From contig NC_092671.1 of NCBI RefSeq assembly GCF_964355755.1, forward strand, positions 9,435,001-9,499,000: DNA of 64,000 nucleotides, written 5' to 3'. The notes beneath the pieces were generated by a model that saw only the letters and a list, made by a program, of their open reading frames with translations, did no database searches and was not told the origin of the DNA. This document shows, in pieces, positions 31,441-64,000 of this stretch; position 1 is the stretch's first letter; each line of letters starts with the position of its first letter. Origin of the DNA: Antedon mediterranea. Its lineage: Eukaryota; Echinodermata; Crinoidea; Comatulida; Antedonidae. A program made the position numbers and the translations under genes.

Positions 31441-32300
31441 GGCATATACAACATCTTAAGTGTAGGCATAGTACAGCACAAAGCTAACATATACAACATC
31501 TTAAGTGTAGGCATAGTACAGCACAAAGCTAACATATACAACATCTTAAGTGTAGGCATAGTACAGCACAAAGCTAACATATACAACATCTTAAGTGTAG
31601 GCATAGTACAGCACAAAGCTAACATATACAACATCTTAAGTGTAGGCATAGTACAGCACAAAGCTAACATATACAACATCTTAAGTGTAGGCATAGTACA
31701 GCACAAAGCTAACATATACAACATCTTAAGTGTAGGCATAGTACAGCACAAAGCTAACATATACAACATCTTAAGTGTAGGCATAGTACAGCACAAAGCT
31801 AACATATACAACATCTTAAGTGTAGGCATAGTACAGCACAAAGCTAACATATACAACATCTTAAGTGTAGGCATAGTACAGCACAAAGCTAACATATACA
31901 ACATCTTAAGTGTAGGCATAGTACAGCACAAAGCTAACATATACAACATCTTAAGTGTAGGCATAGTACAGCACAAAGCTAACATATACAACATCTTAAG
32001 TGTAGGCATAGTACAGCACAAAGCTAACATATACAACATCTTAAGTGTAGGCATAGTACAGCACAAAGCTAACATATACAACATCTTAAGTGTAGGCATA
32101 GTACAGCACAAAGCTAACATATACAACATCTTAAGTGTAGGCATAGTACAGCACAAAGCTAACATATACAACATCTTAAGTGTAGGCATAGTACAGCACA
32201 AAGCTAACATATACAACATCTTAAGTGTAGGCATAGTACAGCACAAAGCTAACATATACAACATCTTAAGTGTAGGCATAGTACAGCACAAAGCTAACAG
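31441..32300. repeat. 45-bp tandem array, 19 copies
   Basis: Nineteen head-to-tail copies of a 45-bp unit (contains catcttaagtgtaggcatag) with no difference seen between copies except at the left edge. Because 45 is divisible by 3 the minus strand reads as a 297-codon open frame of a 15-residue unit (MLALCCTMPTLKMLY), but it starts from a TTG and nothing suggests a gene. The perfection implies very recent expansion or strong homogenisation. Confidence 0.95.
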
Positions 32301-54550: not shown

Positions 54551-55302
54551 ATCAAGTCATCACTGCATGGTTTTTTTTTTTTAAAAACGTTATTATTATA
54601 TTAATTTCCCCGTTTCTCTTCCTACGGAAGGTGAAAAAAACAAACAAAATGGCCTGCTAGGTTCTTTGAATGGTATAATCATTTGAAGTAGTCCTATATT
54701 GAACTAATGATTTATTATAATCATTTTAAATAGACTTATAATATAATGGTATGTGAACAAACATCAAGTACTGTACTGGCCTAGGTCTAGTGAATTAATG
54801 CATTAATAATCATAGGAAATAATAATTTAATGAGTATAGCTATTTCCTCCAGATCTCTCGTGAACACATTCAAAACTTTAAGAAACGGCGGCCTAATAAA
54901 TATATTTGTTTAATCCATAAAATAAAATGTGATCTATAAATTTAATTATCATCGAAAAGTGGAAACATTGTTATTGTTATGTAGGTGTGTACGGATACAT
55001 CATCATGGAGGAAATACATTTATTAGATAAACATATGTTGTTTACTCCGTGCTTTAGGCCAAGCTGTTTCTCTAGATCTTAAATACCACTTATTCTTTGA
55101 TGACCTTGAAATCAATAATGAATTTAAAATTACACCAACTCAATTGACCCAAATACGAATTAGCAAGTAATATTTTCGACAAACATTGTAAAATATTTCT
55201 GACCATGGCATGGAACACACAAATATAATATACTGTATTATAATATATTTTTTTGTAATTTGTTCTTATGTCTACTTGTGTTTGTTATTATATATAAATC
55301 CA
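54551..55302. other. intergenic stretch between the zinc transporters
   Basis: AT-rich with no gene or element that I can support. Confidence 0.4.
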
Positions 55303-55365
55303 AAGGCAAATTACTGAAAAATGACAATGCTGTGGGTATCAGTGGCTGGATCTCAATGGAAACAA
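55303..55365. repeat. dispersed repeat piece shared with 32523-32580
   Basis: Both places share 'caaaggcaaattactgaaaa', 'atgacaatgctg' and 'ctggatctcaatgg'. The element it belongs to is not known. Confidence 0.65.
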
Positions 55366-55440
55366 AACACATACTGTACATAAAATCAAAGAACTTATTA
55401 TAATATAAGTTCTTTGATAAAATCAAGAGGCTAATTTTAT

Positions 55441-56151
55441 AGCTTCAATACCTTGACAAACTTAACATCATTAATAAATCACAGTTTGGTTTTCGCAAAA
55501 ACCACTCTACGAGTCATGCACTTTCACAAACAATAGAAAAAATTACTTCAGCAATAGATGAACAAATGATAAGTATCGGCGTCTTCCTAGACCTTTCTAA
55601 GGCATTTGATACGATAGATCATGAGATTCTCTTACAAAAACTCAAATTTTATGGTATTCGGGGCATTGTTCTTGAATGGTTTAAGAGCTACTTATATATG
55701 AGAAAACAATATGTTCACATGGGAAATTGTAAATCAGAATTAAAACTGATTGAATATGGAGTACCACAAGGCTCAATTCTTGGGCCGTTACTTTTTATAA
55801 TTTATACAAATGACATTGTTGAAAGTAGTAAATATTTAGAATTTGTCATTTTTGCTGACGATACTAACGTATTTTTTAAGCACAAAGATATAAACCTTTT
55901 AATTAACACTTTAAATACAGAATTAAGTAAATTAAGTGATTGGTTTACTGCAAACAAATTGAGTCTGAATACAAAGAAGACCAAGTTTATCGAATTTAGA
56001 AGCATGTATAAGAAAAAAGATACCAATAACTATACTTTATTTATTAATGATGTTGAAATTGAAAGAGTTAGTAAAATTAAGTTCTTAGGTGTCATTCTTG
56101 ATGAGTTTGTAACATTCCATGATCACATAGATATCATTACTATGAAAATTG
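55441..56151 (+). pseudogene. reverse transcriptase fragment of the split retrotransposon
   Basis: An open stretch from before 55566 up to the transposon border at 56151. It contains the RT motifs FGFRKNHSTSHAL, LSKAFDTIDHE, GVPQGSILGPLLF and FADDTN, then the thumb (SLNTKKTKFIEF and KFLGVILDE). The true 5' part with endonuclease is missing. Confidence 0.9.
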
Positions 56152-56324
56152 CTCTCTTAAATTCATCGATTGGAAATTTCGATCGTATTTACGTTTGATG
56201 ATTAAAACCAAACTTTTTAGACTGAATATGGTATTCATGAACGTGAAATACGCTCCAGTTGAAAATAAAGTTTCAACTGATAGAAAGTTTGATTACAACA
56301 TCCAATCAGCGCCTAATATATTGT

Positions 56325-56510
56325 GACGTGAAAGCGCGCGGACAACAAAAGTTTGTCTTCCCTCTCCTCGCTTCCCGCCCGCCTGATCTTCAGAGTCAGT
56401 GTCTTCATGCTCATCGATCGCATTTTAGATTCTTTGCCGACAATTTACGAGCTACCGTATTCGTAACATATACCAATTGAATCAATATCTATTTTAGAAG
56501 GTTGGTAATC
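56325..56510 (+). promoter_or_regulatory. GC-rich promoter/5' exon-like stretch within transposon copy 1
   Basis: An abrupt rise in GC (gacgtgaaagcgcgcggac, cctcgcttcccgcccgcc) in an otherwise AT-rich element, followed by a possible donor (ggttg/gtaatc) at about 56505. It could be the promoter and non-coding first exon of the carried gene. The equivalent in copy 2 is at 58887-59072. Confidence 0.35.
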
Positions 56511-57249
56511 ATTTATTTTAAATTGAATCTAAGGCATACGCTACATTGAGGCCTACATTCACACCACCACCACCGCGCACATTTTCTGGCCACAGCACAG
56601 ATCTAGGCCTAGTTAGTAGGCTAGTTGACGTGACAGCAGCGAGTGTGGTGTACGGTGGTTACGGCTCGAGTTTATTTTTGCCGGTTACCGAGTTAGGCTA
56701 TAGGCCTAGACCTAGTTAGTGAGTAGCCTAGGTTAAATTTACTAAATCAAATGTGTTATGCCTTGAATATTATTCTATCTAGGCTAGGCCTAGCCTAGTT
56801 GAATAGGCATTTCCATTGTATAAACAATTTTAATGAATACTAAAAAAACGTTACTTTGTAATTCTTGTAATGTAATGTAATGACGTTCTCTAGCTAGGCC
56901 TACCCTACTACTACTAGCTAGCATAGGCTAGTACTAGCCTAGTAGGCTAGGCCTAACTAGTAGGTCTAGCTGGAGAAGAGCTAGGTCTAATAAATAGGCC
57001 TAGGCTAGGCCTAGTTACTAAGCCTAGGCCCTACTTTAATACTATTTCCTAGACTAGGCCCTAGGGGCCTAGGCCTATAGCTAGAGCCTCTAGTAGGGCC
57101 TAGCCTAGGCGTCCTACGAATAAATTATGATATAATTAATAATTATAATATTAATAAATAATGACGATAGGCTATACTGTGTATACTGTACAGTACTAAA
57201 CTATAACATTTAGTAGAAACATATTATTTCTATCTATTGCACAGGAAAA

Positions 57250-57585
57250 ATGCTTGACTACACAATGTCAATGATGTTTCGGGCTGTAATCATTCACAAT
57301 AACAACATGGACATCATCTTGAACGATTTATATTTATTTTTTGATAGTAAGTAATAATAATATGTTGTATATCTGTATTTAAATCACTGTATTTATACAT
57401 GTCAATTGTGTATAAATTCGTGTTTTTTAAGCTTTAAAACAGGGACTGGATTAAAAAATATTTTCAACCTAGAAGAAACTACTCGACATACCGACCTGAT
57501 GCTAGAAAAAGATTGCCTAATTATTGGTGGCTTGACTGAATCTGAACTAGCCTATTATTTTTACTATTTGTGTTACTATTATTAA
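57250..57585 (+). CDS. two-exon small ORF carried by transposon copy 1 (79 aa, unknown function)
   Basis: Exon 57245-57346 (acceptor ctattgcacag, donor gtaagt) holds an ATG at 57250 and 32 codons (FRAVIIHNNNMDIILNDLY inside). A second exon from 57443 (acceptor gctttaaaacag) continues in phase to a TAA at 57585. The product has no domain that I recognise. Further exon-like pieces follow: 57674-57722 with strong sites, and one starting at 57994 coding DATDVRKEYAGQKFAQPYLL. So it may be a captured multi-exon host gene fragment. A poly(A) signal lies at about 58303. Splicing is inferred. Confidence 0.45.
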
Positions 57586-58556
57586 TGTTTTATAATTTAT
57601 TTTGTGCACTAGGCCTAATGGTCTTGTTATGTTGATTTATATGAAGCATACTATATGTCTCAATCTTATACAGAGCATGAACCAAATCAGAAGCTGTGAA
57701 TTTGTTCATTCAACATATCCATGTAAGCATATTAATTAATAGTACAGTTTTTATTTTCATTTTAAAAATTACGAATGTCAAAATTTACTTAAATTAGAGA
57801 AAAGAGTTTTATATGATACTCTTTTCTGATAATATTGAATAGCAAAACTATTCACCGTTGCTTTTTAAGACCATATTGAAAATAAAAAATTATCAATGAT
57901 AAAGATAGTACAGTACTACTACTAAAGATGCGTACATTTATCAAATATTTTATGATAAATAACAGTTTGTTATGCTTTTTGTTATTCTTACAGGATGCAA
58001 CAGATGTTAGAAAAGAGTATGCAGGACAAAAATTTGCACAGCCATATTTATTGTCAATTGGACGGTCATCATAACTCAACATGTACTTTCATTCAGACAC
58101 ATTATAGAAGCCATGGTTGGGATTTTATTTAGGCTGCACTATATTTTCCTGAATGATATTTGTGGACTTTGTAGATGCCCTCCCAAGAATTAGGGTATAT
58201 CACCAAGGCATATAAGATAGTTTTTGAATTTATAATTATACTACTGAAAGGCAAAGACTACAGCAGTGTCTTGACTATTGTAATATACTGTTGTTATGTT
58301 TTCAATAAAATCAAAATGGAATATATATAAGAAACGTATCTTTTTTAAGCATCGTATTTAAACAAAAAAGTCAATCGATTTTGGTTGAAAAAATAATTTT
58401 TCCAATCTTCTTAGTTTGAAATTTTTCAATCTTTGAATCGATTGAAAATCTTCAATCGTTATTTCAATCAATCCGATTTGTCCCTACTCACAGTCGGCCA
58501 AAAGTTGAAAAATCAACCGTATCGATTGAATATTCAGTCGACCAATTTAAGAGAGT

Positions 58557-58713
58557 GCAAGGGTCATTGGTGTAATGAACAAACTTAAATATATTGTTCA
58601 ATCAGATGTTTTGTTAATAATGTAGGCCTACAACTCGTTAATTTTACCTCACCTAATATATGCAATAACTATTTGGGGAGTTGCGGGGGCAACGAAGCTA
58701 CAGAGAATACATA
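58557..58713 (+). pseudogene. middle fragment of the split retrotransposon ORF
   Basis: 157 bases between the two DNA transposons read in one frame with a single stop (TAG at 58623-58625). They give GVMNKLKYIV, then LILPHLIYAITIWGVAGATK and LQRIH, the expected region after the RT domain. Confidence 0.88.
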
Positions 58714-61116
58714 CTCTCTTAAATTCATCGATTGGAAATTTCGATCGTATTTACGTTTGATGATTAAAACCAAACTTTTTAGACTGAATATGGTATTCAT
58801 GAACGTGAAATACGCTCCAGTTGAAAATAAAGTTTCAACTGATAGAAAGTTTGATTACAACATCCAATCAGCGCCTAATATATTGTGACGTGAAAGCGCG
58901 CGGACAACAAAAGTTTGTCTTCCCTCTCCTCGCTTCCCGCCCGCCTGATCTTCAGAGTCAGTGTCTTCATGCTCATCGATCGCATTTTAGATTCTTTGCC
59001 GACAATTTACGAGCTACCGTATTCGTAACATATACCAATTGAATCAATATCTATTTTAGAAGGTTGGTAATCATTTATTTTAAATTGAATCTAAGGCATA
59101 CGCTACATTGAGGCCTACATTCACACCACCACCACCGCGCACATTTTCTGGCCACAGCACAGATCTAGTTAGTAGGCTAGTTGACGTGACAGCAGCGAGT
59201 GTGGTGTACGGTGGTTACGGCTCGAGTTTATTTTTGCCGGTTACCGAGTTAGGCTATAGGCCTAGACCTAGTTAGTGAGTAGCCTAGGTTAAATTTACTA
59301 AATCAAATGTGTTATGCCTTGAATATTATTCTATCTAGGCTAGGCCTAGCCTAGTTGAATAGGCATTTCCATTGTATAAACAATTTTAATGAATACTAAA
59401 AAAACGTTACTTTGTAATTCTTGTAATGTAATGTAATGACGTTCTCTAGCTAGGCCTACCCTACTACTACTAGCTAGCATAGGCTAGTACTAGCCTAGTA
59501 GGCTAGGCCTAACTAGTAGGTCTAGCTGGAGAAGAGCTAGGTCTAATAAATAGGCCTAGGCTAGGCTAGGCCTAGTTACTAAGCCTAGGCCCTACTTTAA
59601 TACTATTTCCTAGACTAGGCCCTAGGGGCCTAGGCCTATAGCTAGAGCCTCTAGTAGGGCCTAGCCTAGGCGTCCTACGAATAAATTATGATATAATTAA
59701 TAATTATAATATTAATAAATAATGACGATAGGCTATACTGTGTATACTGTACAGTACTAAACTATAACATTTAGTAGAAACATATTATTTCTATCTATTG
59801 CACAGGAAAAATGCTTGACTACACAATGTCAATGATGTTTCGGGCTGTAATCATTCACAATAACAACATGGACATCATCTTGAACGATTTATATTTATTT
59901 TTTGATAGTAAGTAATAATAATATGTTGTATATCTGTATTTAAATCACTGTATTTATACATGTCAATTGTGTATAAATTCGTGTTTTTTAAGCTTTAAAA
60001 CAGGGACTGGATTAAAAAATATTTCCAACCTAGAAGAAACTACTCGACATACCGACCTGATGCTAGAAAAAGATTGCCTAATTATTGGTGGCTTGACTGA
60101 ATCTGAACTAGCCTATTATTTTTACTATTTGTGTTACTATTATTAATGTTTTATAATTTATTTTGTGCACTAGGCCTAATGGTCTTGTTATGTTGATTTA
60201 TATGAAGCATACTATATGTCTCAATCTTATACAGAGCATGAACCAAATCAGAAGCTGTGAATTTGTTCATTCAACATATCCATGTAAGCATATTAATTAA
60301 TAGTACAGTTTTTATTTTCATTTTAAAAATTACGAATGTCAAAATTTACTTAAATTAGAGAAAAGAGTTTTATATGATACTCTTTTCTGATAATATTGAA
60401 TAGCAAAACTATTCACCGTTGCTTTTTAAGACCATATTGAAAATAAAAAATTATCAATGATAAAGATAGTACAGTACTACTACTAAAGATGCGTACATTT
60501 ATCAAATATTTTATGATAAATAACAGTTTGTTATGCTTTTTGTTATTCTTACAGGATGCAACAGATGTTAGAAAAGAGTATGCAGGACAAAAATTTGCAC
60601 AGCCATATTTATTGTCAATTGGACGGTCATCATAACTCAACATGTACTTTCATTCAGACACATTATAGAAGCCATGGTTGGGATTTTATTTAGGCTGCAC
60701 TATATTTTCCTGAATGATATTTGTGGACTTTGTAGATGCCCTCCCAAGAATTAGGGTATATCACCAAGGCATATAAGATAGTTTTTGAATTTATAATTAT
60801 ACTACTGAAAGACAAAGACTACAGCAGTGTCTTGACTATTGTAATATACTGTTGTTATGTTTTCAATAAAATCAAAATGGAATATATATAAGAAACGTAT
60901 CTTTTTTAAGCATCGTATTTAAACAAAAAAGTCAATCGATTTTGGTTGAAAAAATAATTTTTCCAATCTTCTTAGTTTGAAATTTTTCAATCTTTGAATC
61001 GATTGAAAATCTTCAATCGTTATTTCAATCAATCCGATTTGTCCCTACTCACAGTCGGCCAAAAGTTGAAAAATCAACCGTATCGATTGAATATTCAGTC
61101 GACCAATTTAAGAGAG
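58714..61116 (+). mobile_element. 2.4 kb inverted-repeat DNA transposon, copy 2
   Basis: The same element in the same orientation as copy 1. I found only three small indels (6, 5 and 1 bases) and two substitutions between them, so both are recent. It is flanked by TA (58712-58713 and 61117-61118). Removing it with one TA restores L-Q-R-I-H-I-L-Q-K-R in the host frame. The carried small gene is intact here too. Confidence 0.92.
59811..60146 (+). CDS. two-exon small ORF carried by transposon copy 2
   Basis: Exons 59806-59907 and 60004-60146, with the same splice sites and phase as copy 1. A t-to-c change (tatttccaacc against tattttcaacc) is silent (TTT/TTC context). The reading frame has stayed open in both copies, but the copies are too young for this to prove selection. 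Confidence 0.45.
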
Positions 61117-61508
61117 TATACTTCAAAAACGAGCGATCAGAATTATATGTAAAGTGCATTATCAGCATCCATCAGCAAATTTATTCTATAACAAAAACCT
61201 ATTGAACATTTTTGACTTGTATGAGAAGTTCACTGCTGTATTTATGTTTCAATTCTGTATGGGCAATTTACCAGTTTCATTTAACTCTTTTTTTAACAAA
61301 AATGGAATCTGTACATGAGTATGGTACGCGGAAGAAGAGTGATTTCCGTATTCCTCTAAAAAGAACAAATATAGGACAAAGAAGTATTGCCTATAGAGGG
61401 GCAAATATTTGGAACCGTTTACCTGAAAACATAAAGTGTGAAACTAAAATCGGACAATTTAAAAAGGAAATACAACAACTATTAATAAATAAATACTCAC
61501 TCATGTAG
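61117..61508 (+). pseudogene. C-terminal fragment of the split retrotransposon ORF
   Basis: It starts in the frame of LQKRAIRII, shifts frame at about 61310, then reads HEYGTRKK, RTNIGQRSIAYRGANIWNRL and a TAG at 61508. This ending is characteristic of ORF2 of CR1/Jockey-like elements. Confidence 0.88.
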
Positions 61509-61829
61509 AGTTCACTTTTGTTACTTTTAGCCTACTTTTTATTTCTATTTGTACTTTTATTGTTTTATTTGCTAATTAGATATCTGTATTATAGGGTAAT
61601 GCGTTTAAGAGCTTCGGCTCATTGCATACCCGTTTTGTATCAAATAAGTTTATAGAAAAATATTCCTGTGAAAGAAATACTGTATTATTTTGTTGTTGAT
61701 ACAAATAAATGGTACGTATATAGTACCGCGAATGATGAAATACAGTACTTGTTTGGTTTAAACCATGGAGTTATAAAATAAAAACTACGAGTAACGTCCT
61801 CTAATATATAATATAAATAATAATAAAAT

Positions 61830-62100
61830 AAAATACGTCACTGGAATACGGAAGTGATGCGCGCACCGCACGACGGCGACGGCGGCCGGCCGGCCGGCCA
61901 CGTACTATAATTATTTTGTAAACCTTTCATCAAAGAGCGCCACCTACGTTACACCATGATTACGTCATCTTCTTCTAGAACTTTAATGTATTTTTCACAC
62001 GGCTCGCCATTTTCATTCACACGGCACCCAAAAACGAACTGTTTTCACGAGGAAAACAAATTTGATTGATCAGAAGTTCCCAGCTGGCGCAGTGTGGTGA
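61830..62100 (+). promoter_or_regulatory. candidate promoter and first non-coding exon of the ZIP gene
   Basis: The most CG-rich piece of the right flank. In order: tacgtca (CRE-like, 61835), acggaagtg (ETS-like, 61849), tgcgcgc (MRE-like core, 61858), then a ggccggcc run. Good donors follow at gtgtg/gtgagtgc (62096) and aact/gtgagtagg (62120), so a non-coding exon 1 spliced to 63701 is plausible. The factor sites are short and inferred. Confidence 0.45.
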
Positions 62101-63700
62101 GTGCACAAAAACCCAAACTGTGAGTAGGCCTAGGCCTATATTATTTGTTATTGTTCATGTTGTTCCATTTTTATCATGTATTTTACTATATTACCGTATA
62201 TGGCTGAAGACAAAGACAAAGGACCCAGTCAGCTCAGCAGCGAGGCTAGAGATTGGCCTAATTAACTAGCCTACTATAGTACTAGAGAGAGAGGCTGTCT
62301 TTAGCTTGTTTATTAATTACTAATACTAATAGAGTCTGGCCTAGCCCTAACATAGGCCCTAGTAGTACTAGAAATAGAGAGAAGGAGGACCTACTCTAGA
62401 TAGCTAAGCCTATCTAGCAGATCATAGGCCTACTACTAGGCAATGTTTTTTAGTAATAGTAGGCCTATGTTGGCCTCTAGGGCTAGGCCTAGCCTAGATA
62501 GGTGGAATAGCCTATTGTCCATTTTGCCTTGGCTTAGCCTTATATTAGTGCTAGGCCTAGGCTTGACCTATACAGTGTTTAATTCTTAATAATAATTAAG
62601 TAAAGGTGTGTCTAAAAGTAGTCTAGGTCTATCCACATGTGGTCAACCAAACATTATAATTAATAAATAATTATAGAATAGGCCTAGGCACAGTCGACCG
62701 TGTAAATTCATGTTTATCTTAGCAGCAAGGTCAACTGTGCGTCTAATGCCTTGTTTGCGATTGGCAGCAAAATCGACCTTGCTCCTTCTTATTCTATGTT
62801 GTCTTATTGGCACAGCCACGGTGAACTATACCACAGTCACAAAGATGACCACGGCAATAGAAAACTGTGTGTGGACCAGGAAACGCACATTCATTGTAGA
62901 TAGGAAATGTCTTTTTGGCATTGATTGGCACGGAAGCAACTTCCAGTATTAACATGATATTGCTTTGTGGTTTAAATATTGTCTTATACACAGTGTATAC
63001 TTTTTTTAATTGATGTTCCAATAGTACTAGCCAACATACATACATGCATTGCATTTTTTGGCAAATAAAGATTTCTCCTGGGTCTGGCTAGTGAGTGCAC
63101 AGCCCTTTTACTGTAAGGTCATTTTTATAGGTTAAGCCACTATATAGGCCCATTATTTGCTATTTGATCTATTTACAGATTAACCTGATGGGAAAATGTT
63201 TTTAAACATTACTTGGCATGAATAGTAGTAACTGTACACTATATTGACATTTTTAAAGTACAATGTTAACCTATAAGTTTACTGTATGTTGAATTAGCAT
63301 ATTAAGCTGGTTTATTGGATTTAAATTTATGAAAAATACAGCAAGTATGAACAAATGAATCCTGATCATTAATAGCAATCGATATTATATTGTAAACAGT
63401 GTTATCTTTAATGTACCAACTGTTAGAGATAGATCATAAGTATACAGTAGATATACCTATTGAAATTTTATCAGTGAAGTACAATAGCAGAGCGCCAGAA
63501 AATGCTATTATATAATCTATTAAGTTAAATATAGTAATCTACTGTGTACCGTATGCCGTGGTTGTGACTGATTTCAGTCATGTGATAATTGTGATTCGTA
63601 TTAATATTATTAATACTGTTACTGTATATTCACATTTCACAAACTGTAGCTATAAAACACACAGTACACAGTTTGACTAGGAGTGTTTTTTTTCCGTTAG
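62101..63700 (+). other. probable first intron of the ZIP gene
   Basis: It contains 'taggcctaggcc' low-complexity DNA (62125-62700) and AT-rich sequence, ending at a strong pyrimidine-rich acceptor (tttttttccgttag) at 63700. The ORF at 62710-62952 has no family I recognise. Confidence 0.5.
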
Positions 63701-64000
63701 GAATGGGGAGATCAAGATGAATTTGAAAAACACACGCACACGTTCGTTTATACTTTTCTGCTACATCTGTTTAGTAGTTGGCGTTAAAGAAATATCCGAA
63801 AACAGGTTTCATGAGACTCCTGGTCACTCCTACCGACCAAAAAAAGGCATAGACAATCACACATTAGGTCATTTGTATGAAGAAGAAAGTCTAAAATTAA
63901 TTTTTACCAAACATGGTAAAAACGGGACTATGGACTATGAAGCCTTTCAAGATTTTATAATACACCTTGGACTTGGAAATAAACCAGATGAATCGCATGA
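63701..64000 (+). CDS. SLC39A-like: ZIP zinc transporter (SLC39, LIV-1 type), N-terminal exon, partial
   Basis: The ATG is at 63717; 94 codons run to the window edge. It has a signal peptide (RSFILFCYICLVVGV), then an extracellular stretch with IDNHTLGHLY and the motif LIFTKHGKNGTMDYEAFQDF, followed by IIHLGLG. This matches the '(Y/H)G.NG.(L/M)...F..LL..LGLG' block near the N-terminus of LIV-1 subfamily ZIPs such as SLC39A6 and SLC39A10, which import zinc into the cytosol. The His-rich region and eight membrane segments would lie beyond the window. A 3' splice site precedes it, so 5' UTR exons are upstream. Confidence 0.8.
63703..63720 (+). promoter_or_regulatory. 5-codon uORF overlapping the ZIP start codon
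   Basis: An ATG at 63703 encodes M-G-R-S-R and stops with TGA at 63718-63720. The stop overlaps the main start codon as ATGA. Such an arrangement can reduce translation or permit reinitiation; the effect here is inference. Confidence 0.6.

What the first reader, a model, noticed from the sequence alone, without database searches (positions are those of the whole stretch)
56325..58320. A small intron-containing gene carried inside the transposon
Between the inverted repeats there is a GC-rich promoter-like stretch, an exon with ATG and strong splice sites, an in-phase second exon to a stop (79 aa), two more exon-like pieces (57674-57722; 57994 on) and a poly(A) signal. There is no transposase. 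This looks like a Pack-type element that has captured host gene material, or a cargo gene of unknown function.
Basis: partly seen in the sequence, partly recalled or inferred. Interest (0 to 1): 0.75.

Follow-up and report, generated by a model that had tools for sequence, protein, structure and literature searches.

The report
Nonautonomous transposon with dead accessory gene
This is a 2.4-kb cut-and-paste transposon, present twice in the window, that cannot move by itself; the gene inside it looks like the worn-out remnant of a gene that related transposons in the same genome carry, rather than a captured host gene or a working new gene.

Summary
The transposon is real: copy 1 is 56152-58555; a near-identical copy 2 lies at 58714-61116, both inside one LINE. 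Ends are CTCTCTTAAATT...AATTTAAGAGAG. Of 13 copies with both ends, 12 have 2-bp target duplications (TA 9; TG, CA, CT one each). None has a frame long enough for a transposase except an inserted LINE.

The 79-aa product is not supported: spliced frames this long arise in 22 of 300 shuffles, and changes across copies are 18 nonsynonymous to 3 synonymous.

Two 3' exons (57674-57722; 57994 on) are real but decayed. A diverged relative, L020, encodes them readably. Its last exon recurs at 12 other loci, 9 with a CTCTCTTA-type end downstream; these 9 are two transposon families. One 18.5-kb element with such ends also holds a transposase-like gene; L045 and L046 repeat the order transposase, then this gene, with weak profile support.

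Most likely it is a nonautonomous derivative keeping a pseudogene of its lineage's accessory gene, not a Pack-type capture. The EnSpm-like (CMCT) class rests on motifs, which alone are weak. No autonomous partner with its exact ends was found.

The parts
56152..58555 (+). transposon copy 1 (2404 bp), flanked by TG/TG (56150-56151, 58556-58557)
58714..61116 (+). transposon copy 2 (2403 bp), flanked by TA/TA (58712-58713, 61117-61118)
   Evidence: one search used an end one base too long
56152..56178 (+). left terminal inverted repeat; first 12 bp perfect, 22 of 27
58529..58555 (-). right terminal inverted repeat
56325..57110 (+). GC-rich stretch followed by a TAGGCC-rich, intron-like stretch; taken as promoter and first intron by analogy with L029 and L042
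   Evidence: function inferred
57250..57585 (+).
57674..57722 (+). decayed exon homologous to L020 (frame AWTKSEAVNLFIQHIH)
57994..58195 (+). decayed last exon of the accessory gene; frameshifted relative to L020; lacks 7 nt present in copies L008-L011 and in L016. The 3' limit is by eye
58304..58309 (+). AATAAA polyadenylation-signal match
60235..60283 (+). same decayed exon in copy 2
60555..60756 (+). same decayed last exon in copy 2
55442..56151 (+). LINE (reverse transcriptase) into which both copies inserted; continues 58558-58713 and 61119 to about 61510

Best explanation
A nonautonomous cut-and-paste DNA transposon. It keeps both ends, a 5' GC-rich region and the decayed 3' exons of an intron-containing accessory gene of its transposon lineage, and has lost the transposase gene and the middle of the accessory gene. 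It was moved in trans by a transposase from a related element, most likely of the EnSpm-like CMCT clade, which duplicates 2 bp of target, usually TA. Shown: ends, duplications, copies, absence of a transposase-sized frame, decay of the exons, occurrence of the same exon in other elements with the same terminus, one such element with a transposase-like gene. Inferred: that this lineage's transposase moved this family, that the gene was ancestral to it, the CMCT class, and what the accessory protein does.
For: 13 copies with both ends, 12 with matching 2-bp flanks. L020, a diverged relative with right end TAAGAGAG|TA, carries both 3' exons at 65-72% DNA identity and reads as a coherent protein with one frameshift. 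Its last-exon peptide finds 15 rows at E up to 1: two are L020, one the L016 relic, leaving 12 loci, four of them at E 0.007-0.15 but three of those four tied to stronger rows by 90% or more DNA or peptide identity. Nine of the 12 have a CTCTCTTA-type right end downstream, 8 exact and 1 with two mismatches; they make up two families, and L035 and L042 are one insertion duplicated with its flanks (60 of 60 and 59 of 60 flank bases). An 18.46-kb element with TA/TA flanks (L044:173 to L031:8035; 600 bp between them not fetched) carries a SAM-like exon (by eye; no Pfam match), a transposase-like gene and this last exon, frameshifted, on one strand. L045 and L046 repeat the order: last-exon profile E 0.0022 and 0.0018, best reversed control 0.98. 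L047 shows it by eye only; in L048 a transposase (88-92% DNA to L044) is followed by DNA of the L042/L031 gene region that stops just before the last exon. The same profile scores the last exon of the L009 copy of this family at E 6e-6.
Against: This element shares only 8 terminal bases and the exon with the 18.5-kb element. No element with its own 12-bp end and a transposase was found; three unpaired ends were fetched without success. L045-L047 show no CTCTCTTA ends in the stretches fetched. Three of the 12 exon loci (L028, L032, L034) show no such end. Profile support shrinks when L020 is left out (L009 1.5e-4, L045 0.0034, L046 0.022, L010 0.28) and more when L032 goes too (L009 0.0088, L045 0.0089, L046 0.051, a reversed control 0.049). 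The generic C(2)C-H(3-4)H-E signature also appears in 93, 176 and 20 of 500 shuffles of L045, L046 and L047, and my motif patterns were written after seeing the alignment. Three of 12 duplications are not TA.
Confidence: 0.7

Rival explanations
1. Ancient capture: an ancestor of these transposons took up a host SAM-domain gene once, with introns, and the families inherited it.
For: L028 is a locus of this gene with a SAM domain (Pfam SAM_1 E 2.8e-7), an open last exon, C2H2 zinc-finger frames nearby, no CTCTCTTA end in 13.9 kb and none of the 12 transposase rows near it.
Against: A transposase-like gene and gene pieces of this kind lie together at the 18.5-kb element, L045 and L046, and less surely L047 and L048, so any capture is far older than this family; L028 could equally be an escaped or domesticated transposon gene.
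Confidence: 0.17
2. Recent Pack-type capture of a host gene by this family alone.
For: Gene-like pieces with splice sites inside a transposase-less element.
Against: No donor found by DNA or protein searches of the genome, which can miss weak matches; L012, L016 and L020 share parts of the sequence at 65-92% identity, so it predates this family.
Confidence: 0.05
3. The 79-aa frame is a working cargo gene.
For: Exon parts open in most copies; GTAAG donor and CAG acceptor kept.
Against: 18 nonsynonymous to 3 synonymous variants; 22 of 300 shuffles as long; no Pfam match; outside the family only fragments with stops.
Confidence: 0.03
4. A Tc1/mariner-type nonautonomous element.
For: TA duplications in 9 of 13 copies.
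Against: TG, CA and CT duplications in three copies; the related 18.5-kb element carries a different transposase-like gene.
Confidence: 0.05

Closest known systems
ESTA (EnSpm-like transposons with TA target duplications, fungi; PMC12730594, passages read)
   Same: EnSpm-like motif order in related elements, mostly TA duplications, an extra gene beside the transposase
   Different: Ends CT...AG; duplications not always TA; extra gene is SAM-type, not TET/JBP; phylogeny not tested; host not named here
EnSpm/CACTA and the CMCT clade
   Same: D, D, C(2)C, H(3)H, E order in related transposases; 2-bp duplication within the 2-5 bp range of PMC12730594; CACTA elements have a second protein that in some families supports excision (PMC4158355, passage)
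   Different: Terminus not 5'-CA...TG-3'; CACTA makes 3-bp duplications; no confident Pfam transposase match (DUF4218 only at E 0.12-0.16)
Pack-TYPE elements (PMC8903248, search listing and start of abstract only)
   Same: Nonautonomous transposon with gene-derived interior
   Different: Interior appears to be the lineage's own gene; no host donor found
SAM-domain 'SAMD3-like' multi-copy proteins of fish (recalled, no call)
   Same: SAM domain at the start and a similar last domain, from memory
   Different: Not compared here; whether those genes lie in transposons is not known to me

Membership tests
CMCT clade (EnSpm-Mirage-Chapaev-Transib-like) | transposase with D, D, C(2)C, H(3-4)H, E | tested here: inconclusive
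   Order complete in related loci L045 and L046; L047 lacks the first D motif, L044 the E. Generic signature is frequent in shuffles (93, 176 and 20 of 500). The window element itself has no transposase.
CMCT clade (EnSpm-Mirage-Chapaev-Transib-like) | 2-5 bp target duplication | tested here: met
   12 of 13 copies have 2 bp, L008 none
CMCT clade (EnSpm-Mirage-Chapaev-Transib-like) | 5'-CA...TG-3' ends (in most cases, per PMC12730594) | tested here: not met
   ends are CT...AG (source passage)
ESTA | TA duplications | tested here: inconclusive
   9 TA, 3 other, 1 unmatched of 13; 7 of 8 related elements TA, two of these one duplicated insertion
ESTA | transposase in the ESTA clade of the tree | not tested
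   no ESTA sequences at hand
Tc1/mariner | strict TA duplication (recalled) | tested here: not met
   TG in copy 1, CA in L001 and CT in L003
Pack-TYPE element | interior matches an identifiable host gene | tested here: not met
   no donor; L028 matches only at 35% through L020
Pack-TYPE element | no transposase in the element | tested here: met
   longest frames of 12 of 13 copies are 77-106 aa; the 453-aa frame of L009 is an inserted LINE

The most novel reading that the evidence does not exclude
Animal genomes hold a lineage of EnSpm-like transposons, with CTCTCTTA ends and 2-bp TA-biased duplications, that pair a zinc-finger transposase with an intron-rich SAM-domain accessory protein; much of what is annotated as multi-copy SAM-domain genes in animals would then be transposon-coded or domesticated from it.
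Probability: 0.3. Interest if true: 0.6.

Novelty: new member of a known kind. Interest (0 to 1): 0.32.

Why it matters
It turns an apparent captured gene into a likely fossil of a transposon's own accessory gene, and links an unnamed SAM-type gene family to a transposase. That would give annotators a way to recognise such genes as transposon-coded rather than host genes.

Tried and rejected
Host donor: genome searches with the whole element, its parts and its peptides found only family members and decayed relatives. L016 looked like a donor gene because its matches are colinear over 6.8 kb; it reads as a mosaic with another long-inverted-repeat element inserted. L021 carried a transposase-like frame (SAKLHMLEDHV...GEQGGESIHA) near a 3'-end match; the genome search lists 76 matches, and of the loci fetched (L021+L026, L023, L024, L025) only L021 matched the element, so it was dropped. 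Four left-end fragments on C1 (8.1-8.3 Mb; two of four fetched) lie beside similar zinc-finger frames and look like duplicated DNA, not separate insertions. Three unpaired ends: two share no more with the element than the end pattern, one shares 29 bp; none of the 12 transposase rows lies in them. Rfam: no match in 55000-64000. PDB: no match to the L046 transposase. NCBIfam gave nothing of use for L045 and L046.

Papers: no report of a SAM protein in EnSpm-like transposons was seen in the listings (0 papers; 12 of 233 listed; 12 of 30; 2; 8 of 40; 2, both off topic). One search was poorly framed (two of its terms match each other; 15 of 772 listed). Repbase and subscription journals were not searchable.

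Structure prediction was not used: its stated rule names window proteins and loci from other tools, and the window's own peptides are decayed. The Pfam DUF4218 hits (E 0.16 and 0.12) are too weak to count.

Full report
What is there. The finding's coordinates lie inside a transposon of 2404 bp, 56152-58555, with ends CTCTCTTAAATT...AATTTAAGAGAG (12 of 12 terminal bases match, 22 of the first 27) and a TG duplication; a second copy of 2403 bp, 58714-61116, has TA duplications and differs by 2 mismatches and 11 gap letters. Both interrupt one LINE: with both taken out and one duplication kept, LINE frames of 258 and 95 aa run across the two junctions; the LINE is itself broken by stops between them.

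Copies. A search with 56325-58320 gave 49 matches, ten of them over the full query. Thirteen copies with both ends were aligned (the two in the window and L001-L011): pairwise identity 96-100% over shared letters, L009 and L011 carrying insertions of about 1.6 and 3.5 kb. Flanking dinucleotides: TA in nine, TG, CA and CT in one each, unmatched in one, L008. A 14-base end pattern has 28 matches in the genome against 5 for the control. The longest frame is 77-106 aa in 12 of 13 copies; the 453-aa frame of L009 is an inserted LINE. So no copy encodes a recognisable transposase.

The 79-aa frame. It exists (57250-57346 joined to 57443-57585), but a two-exon frame of 79 aa or more appears in 22 of 300 dinucleotide shuffles of the region, and across 13 copies its variants are 18 nonsynonymous to 3 synonymous, where 72% nonsynonymous is expected by chance. 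No Pfam family matches. A genome search finds only this family, apart from decayed fragments with stops. I take it as not coding.

The two 3' exons. In L020, a diverged relative with right end TAAGAGAG|TA, DNA matching these exons at 65-72% reads as ...STSEAVKYFNQHIP then DGTDVEQ...QPYLLAIRPP...YFLVLDK...IIEAMDKLLKAHYVF, with a frameshift after that. In the window copies the last exon is shifted out of that frame and lacks 7 nt present in L008-L011 and L016. So these are pseudogene exons with intact-looking splice sites.

Whose gene it is. The L020 peptide finds 15 rows at E up to 1; two are L020 and one is the L016 relic, leaving 12 loci, some at weak E (0.007-0.15). Nine have a CTCTCTTA-type right end downstream (eight exact, one with two mismatches) and three, L028, L032 and L034, do not. 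The nine are not independent: they form two families, L029/L030/L033/L037 and C7:27773853, and L031/L035/L036/L042; L035 and L042 are one insertion duplicated with its flanks. L029 and L030 are copies of one 3.7-kb element with TA duplications and a layout like that of the window element: GC-rich start, TAGGCC-rich stretch, degenerate exons, last exon, end. The second family (L035, L039, L041, L042; 3.0-3.9 kb, with L040 a partial relative) has a similar layout. Of eight related elements whose flanks I saw, seven have TA on both sides and L039 does not.

Transposase. Pairing ends of the pattern CTCTCTTAWTGTAAAMGAGTGA (37 matches, none for the control) gives an 18.46-kb element on C1 with TA/TA flanks, of which 600 bp were not fetched. 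It holds a SAM-like exon (by eye; no Pfam match), a transposase-like frame, retrotransposon insertions and the last exon with a frameshift, on one strand; it is itself decayed. A search with its transposase gives 12 rows, among them frames of 828, 843 and 426 aa at L045, L046 and L047, and two broken ones at L048. In L045 and L046 a last exon of this kind follows on the same strand (profile E 0.0022 and 0.0018, best reversed control 0.98). L047 shows a following gene by eye only. In L048 the first transposase is followed by DNA 82-95% identical to the gene region of L042 and L031, ending just before the last exon, where another retroelement interrupts. Leaving L020 out of the profile gives L009 1.5e-4, L045 0.0034, L046 0.022; leaving L032 out as well gives L009 0.0088, L045 0.0089, L046 0.051, with a reversed control at 0.049. 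The SAM assignment is by Pfam for L028 only (E 2.8e-7); in L045 and L046 it is weak (SAM_TNK E 0.08 and 0.032).

Class. The transposases show D, D, C(2)C, H(3)H and E in that order, complete in L045 and L046 and partial in L044 and L047; the blocks align across families. My patterns were written after seeing the alignment, and a generic form of the signature appears in 93, 176 and 20 of 500 shuffles of L045, L046 and L047, so the class rests on conservation more than on presence. [quoted passage not shown] ESTA is a TA-duplicating branch found in fungi. PMC4482050 (passages) gives 2-4 bp for CMC. PMC4158355 (passages) says CACTA elements make 3-bp duplications and carry a second protein that supports excision in some families. 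The CA...TG ends usual in the clade are absent here.

Mechanism. Best supported: a deletion derivative of such a transposon, with both ends and a dead accessory gene, moved by a related transposase in trans. Shown: ends, duplications, copies, decay, co-occurrence of gene and ends, one element with ends and a transposase-like gene. Not shown: a partner with this family's exact ends; activity; the accessory protein's role. An ancient capture of a host gene before the families split is not excluded; L028 is the locus to test.

Novelty. A nonautonomous family like this is ordinary. The pairing of an EnSpm-like transposase with a SAM-type gene was not seen in the listings, but Repbase and most subscription journals could not be searched, so I do not claim it is unreported.

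Noticed in passing
56152-61116: Two copies of the same transposon inserted 158 bp apart in one LINE, at different dinucleotides (TG, TA).
   Followed up: yes
L017 and L018; C1 8.1-8.3 Mb: About 206 bp of the transposon's left end is found four times; the two loci fetched have similar zinc-finger frames beside it.
   Followed up: partly
L022:6326-6523: A roughly 200-bp stretch with diverged versions of both ends of the transposon, perhaps a miniature element.
   Followed up: no
L028 (C5:10518600-10528500): SAM-domain gene of the same family without transposon ends or transposase found nearby; a candidate host or domesticated copy.
   Followed up: partly
L023, L024, L025 (C4 10.22-10.34 Mb): Three loci about 98% identical over several kb; frame lists of L023 and L025 show large frames, some looking like those of large DNA viruses (by eye, kinase-like).
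   Followed up: no
window 31443-32299: Perfect 45-bp tandem repeat, 19 copies.
   Followed up: no
window 61850-62700: GC-rich stretch followed by a TAGGCC-rich stretch, the same layout as in the transposon's 5' part; may be the start of the next gene.
   Followed up: no
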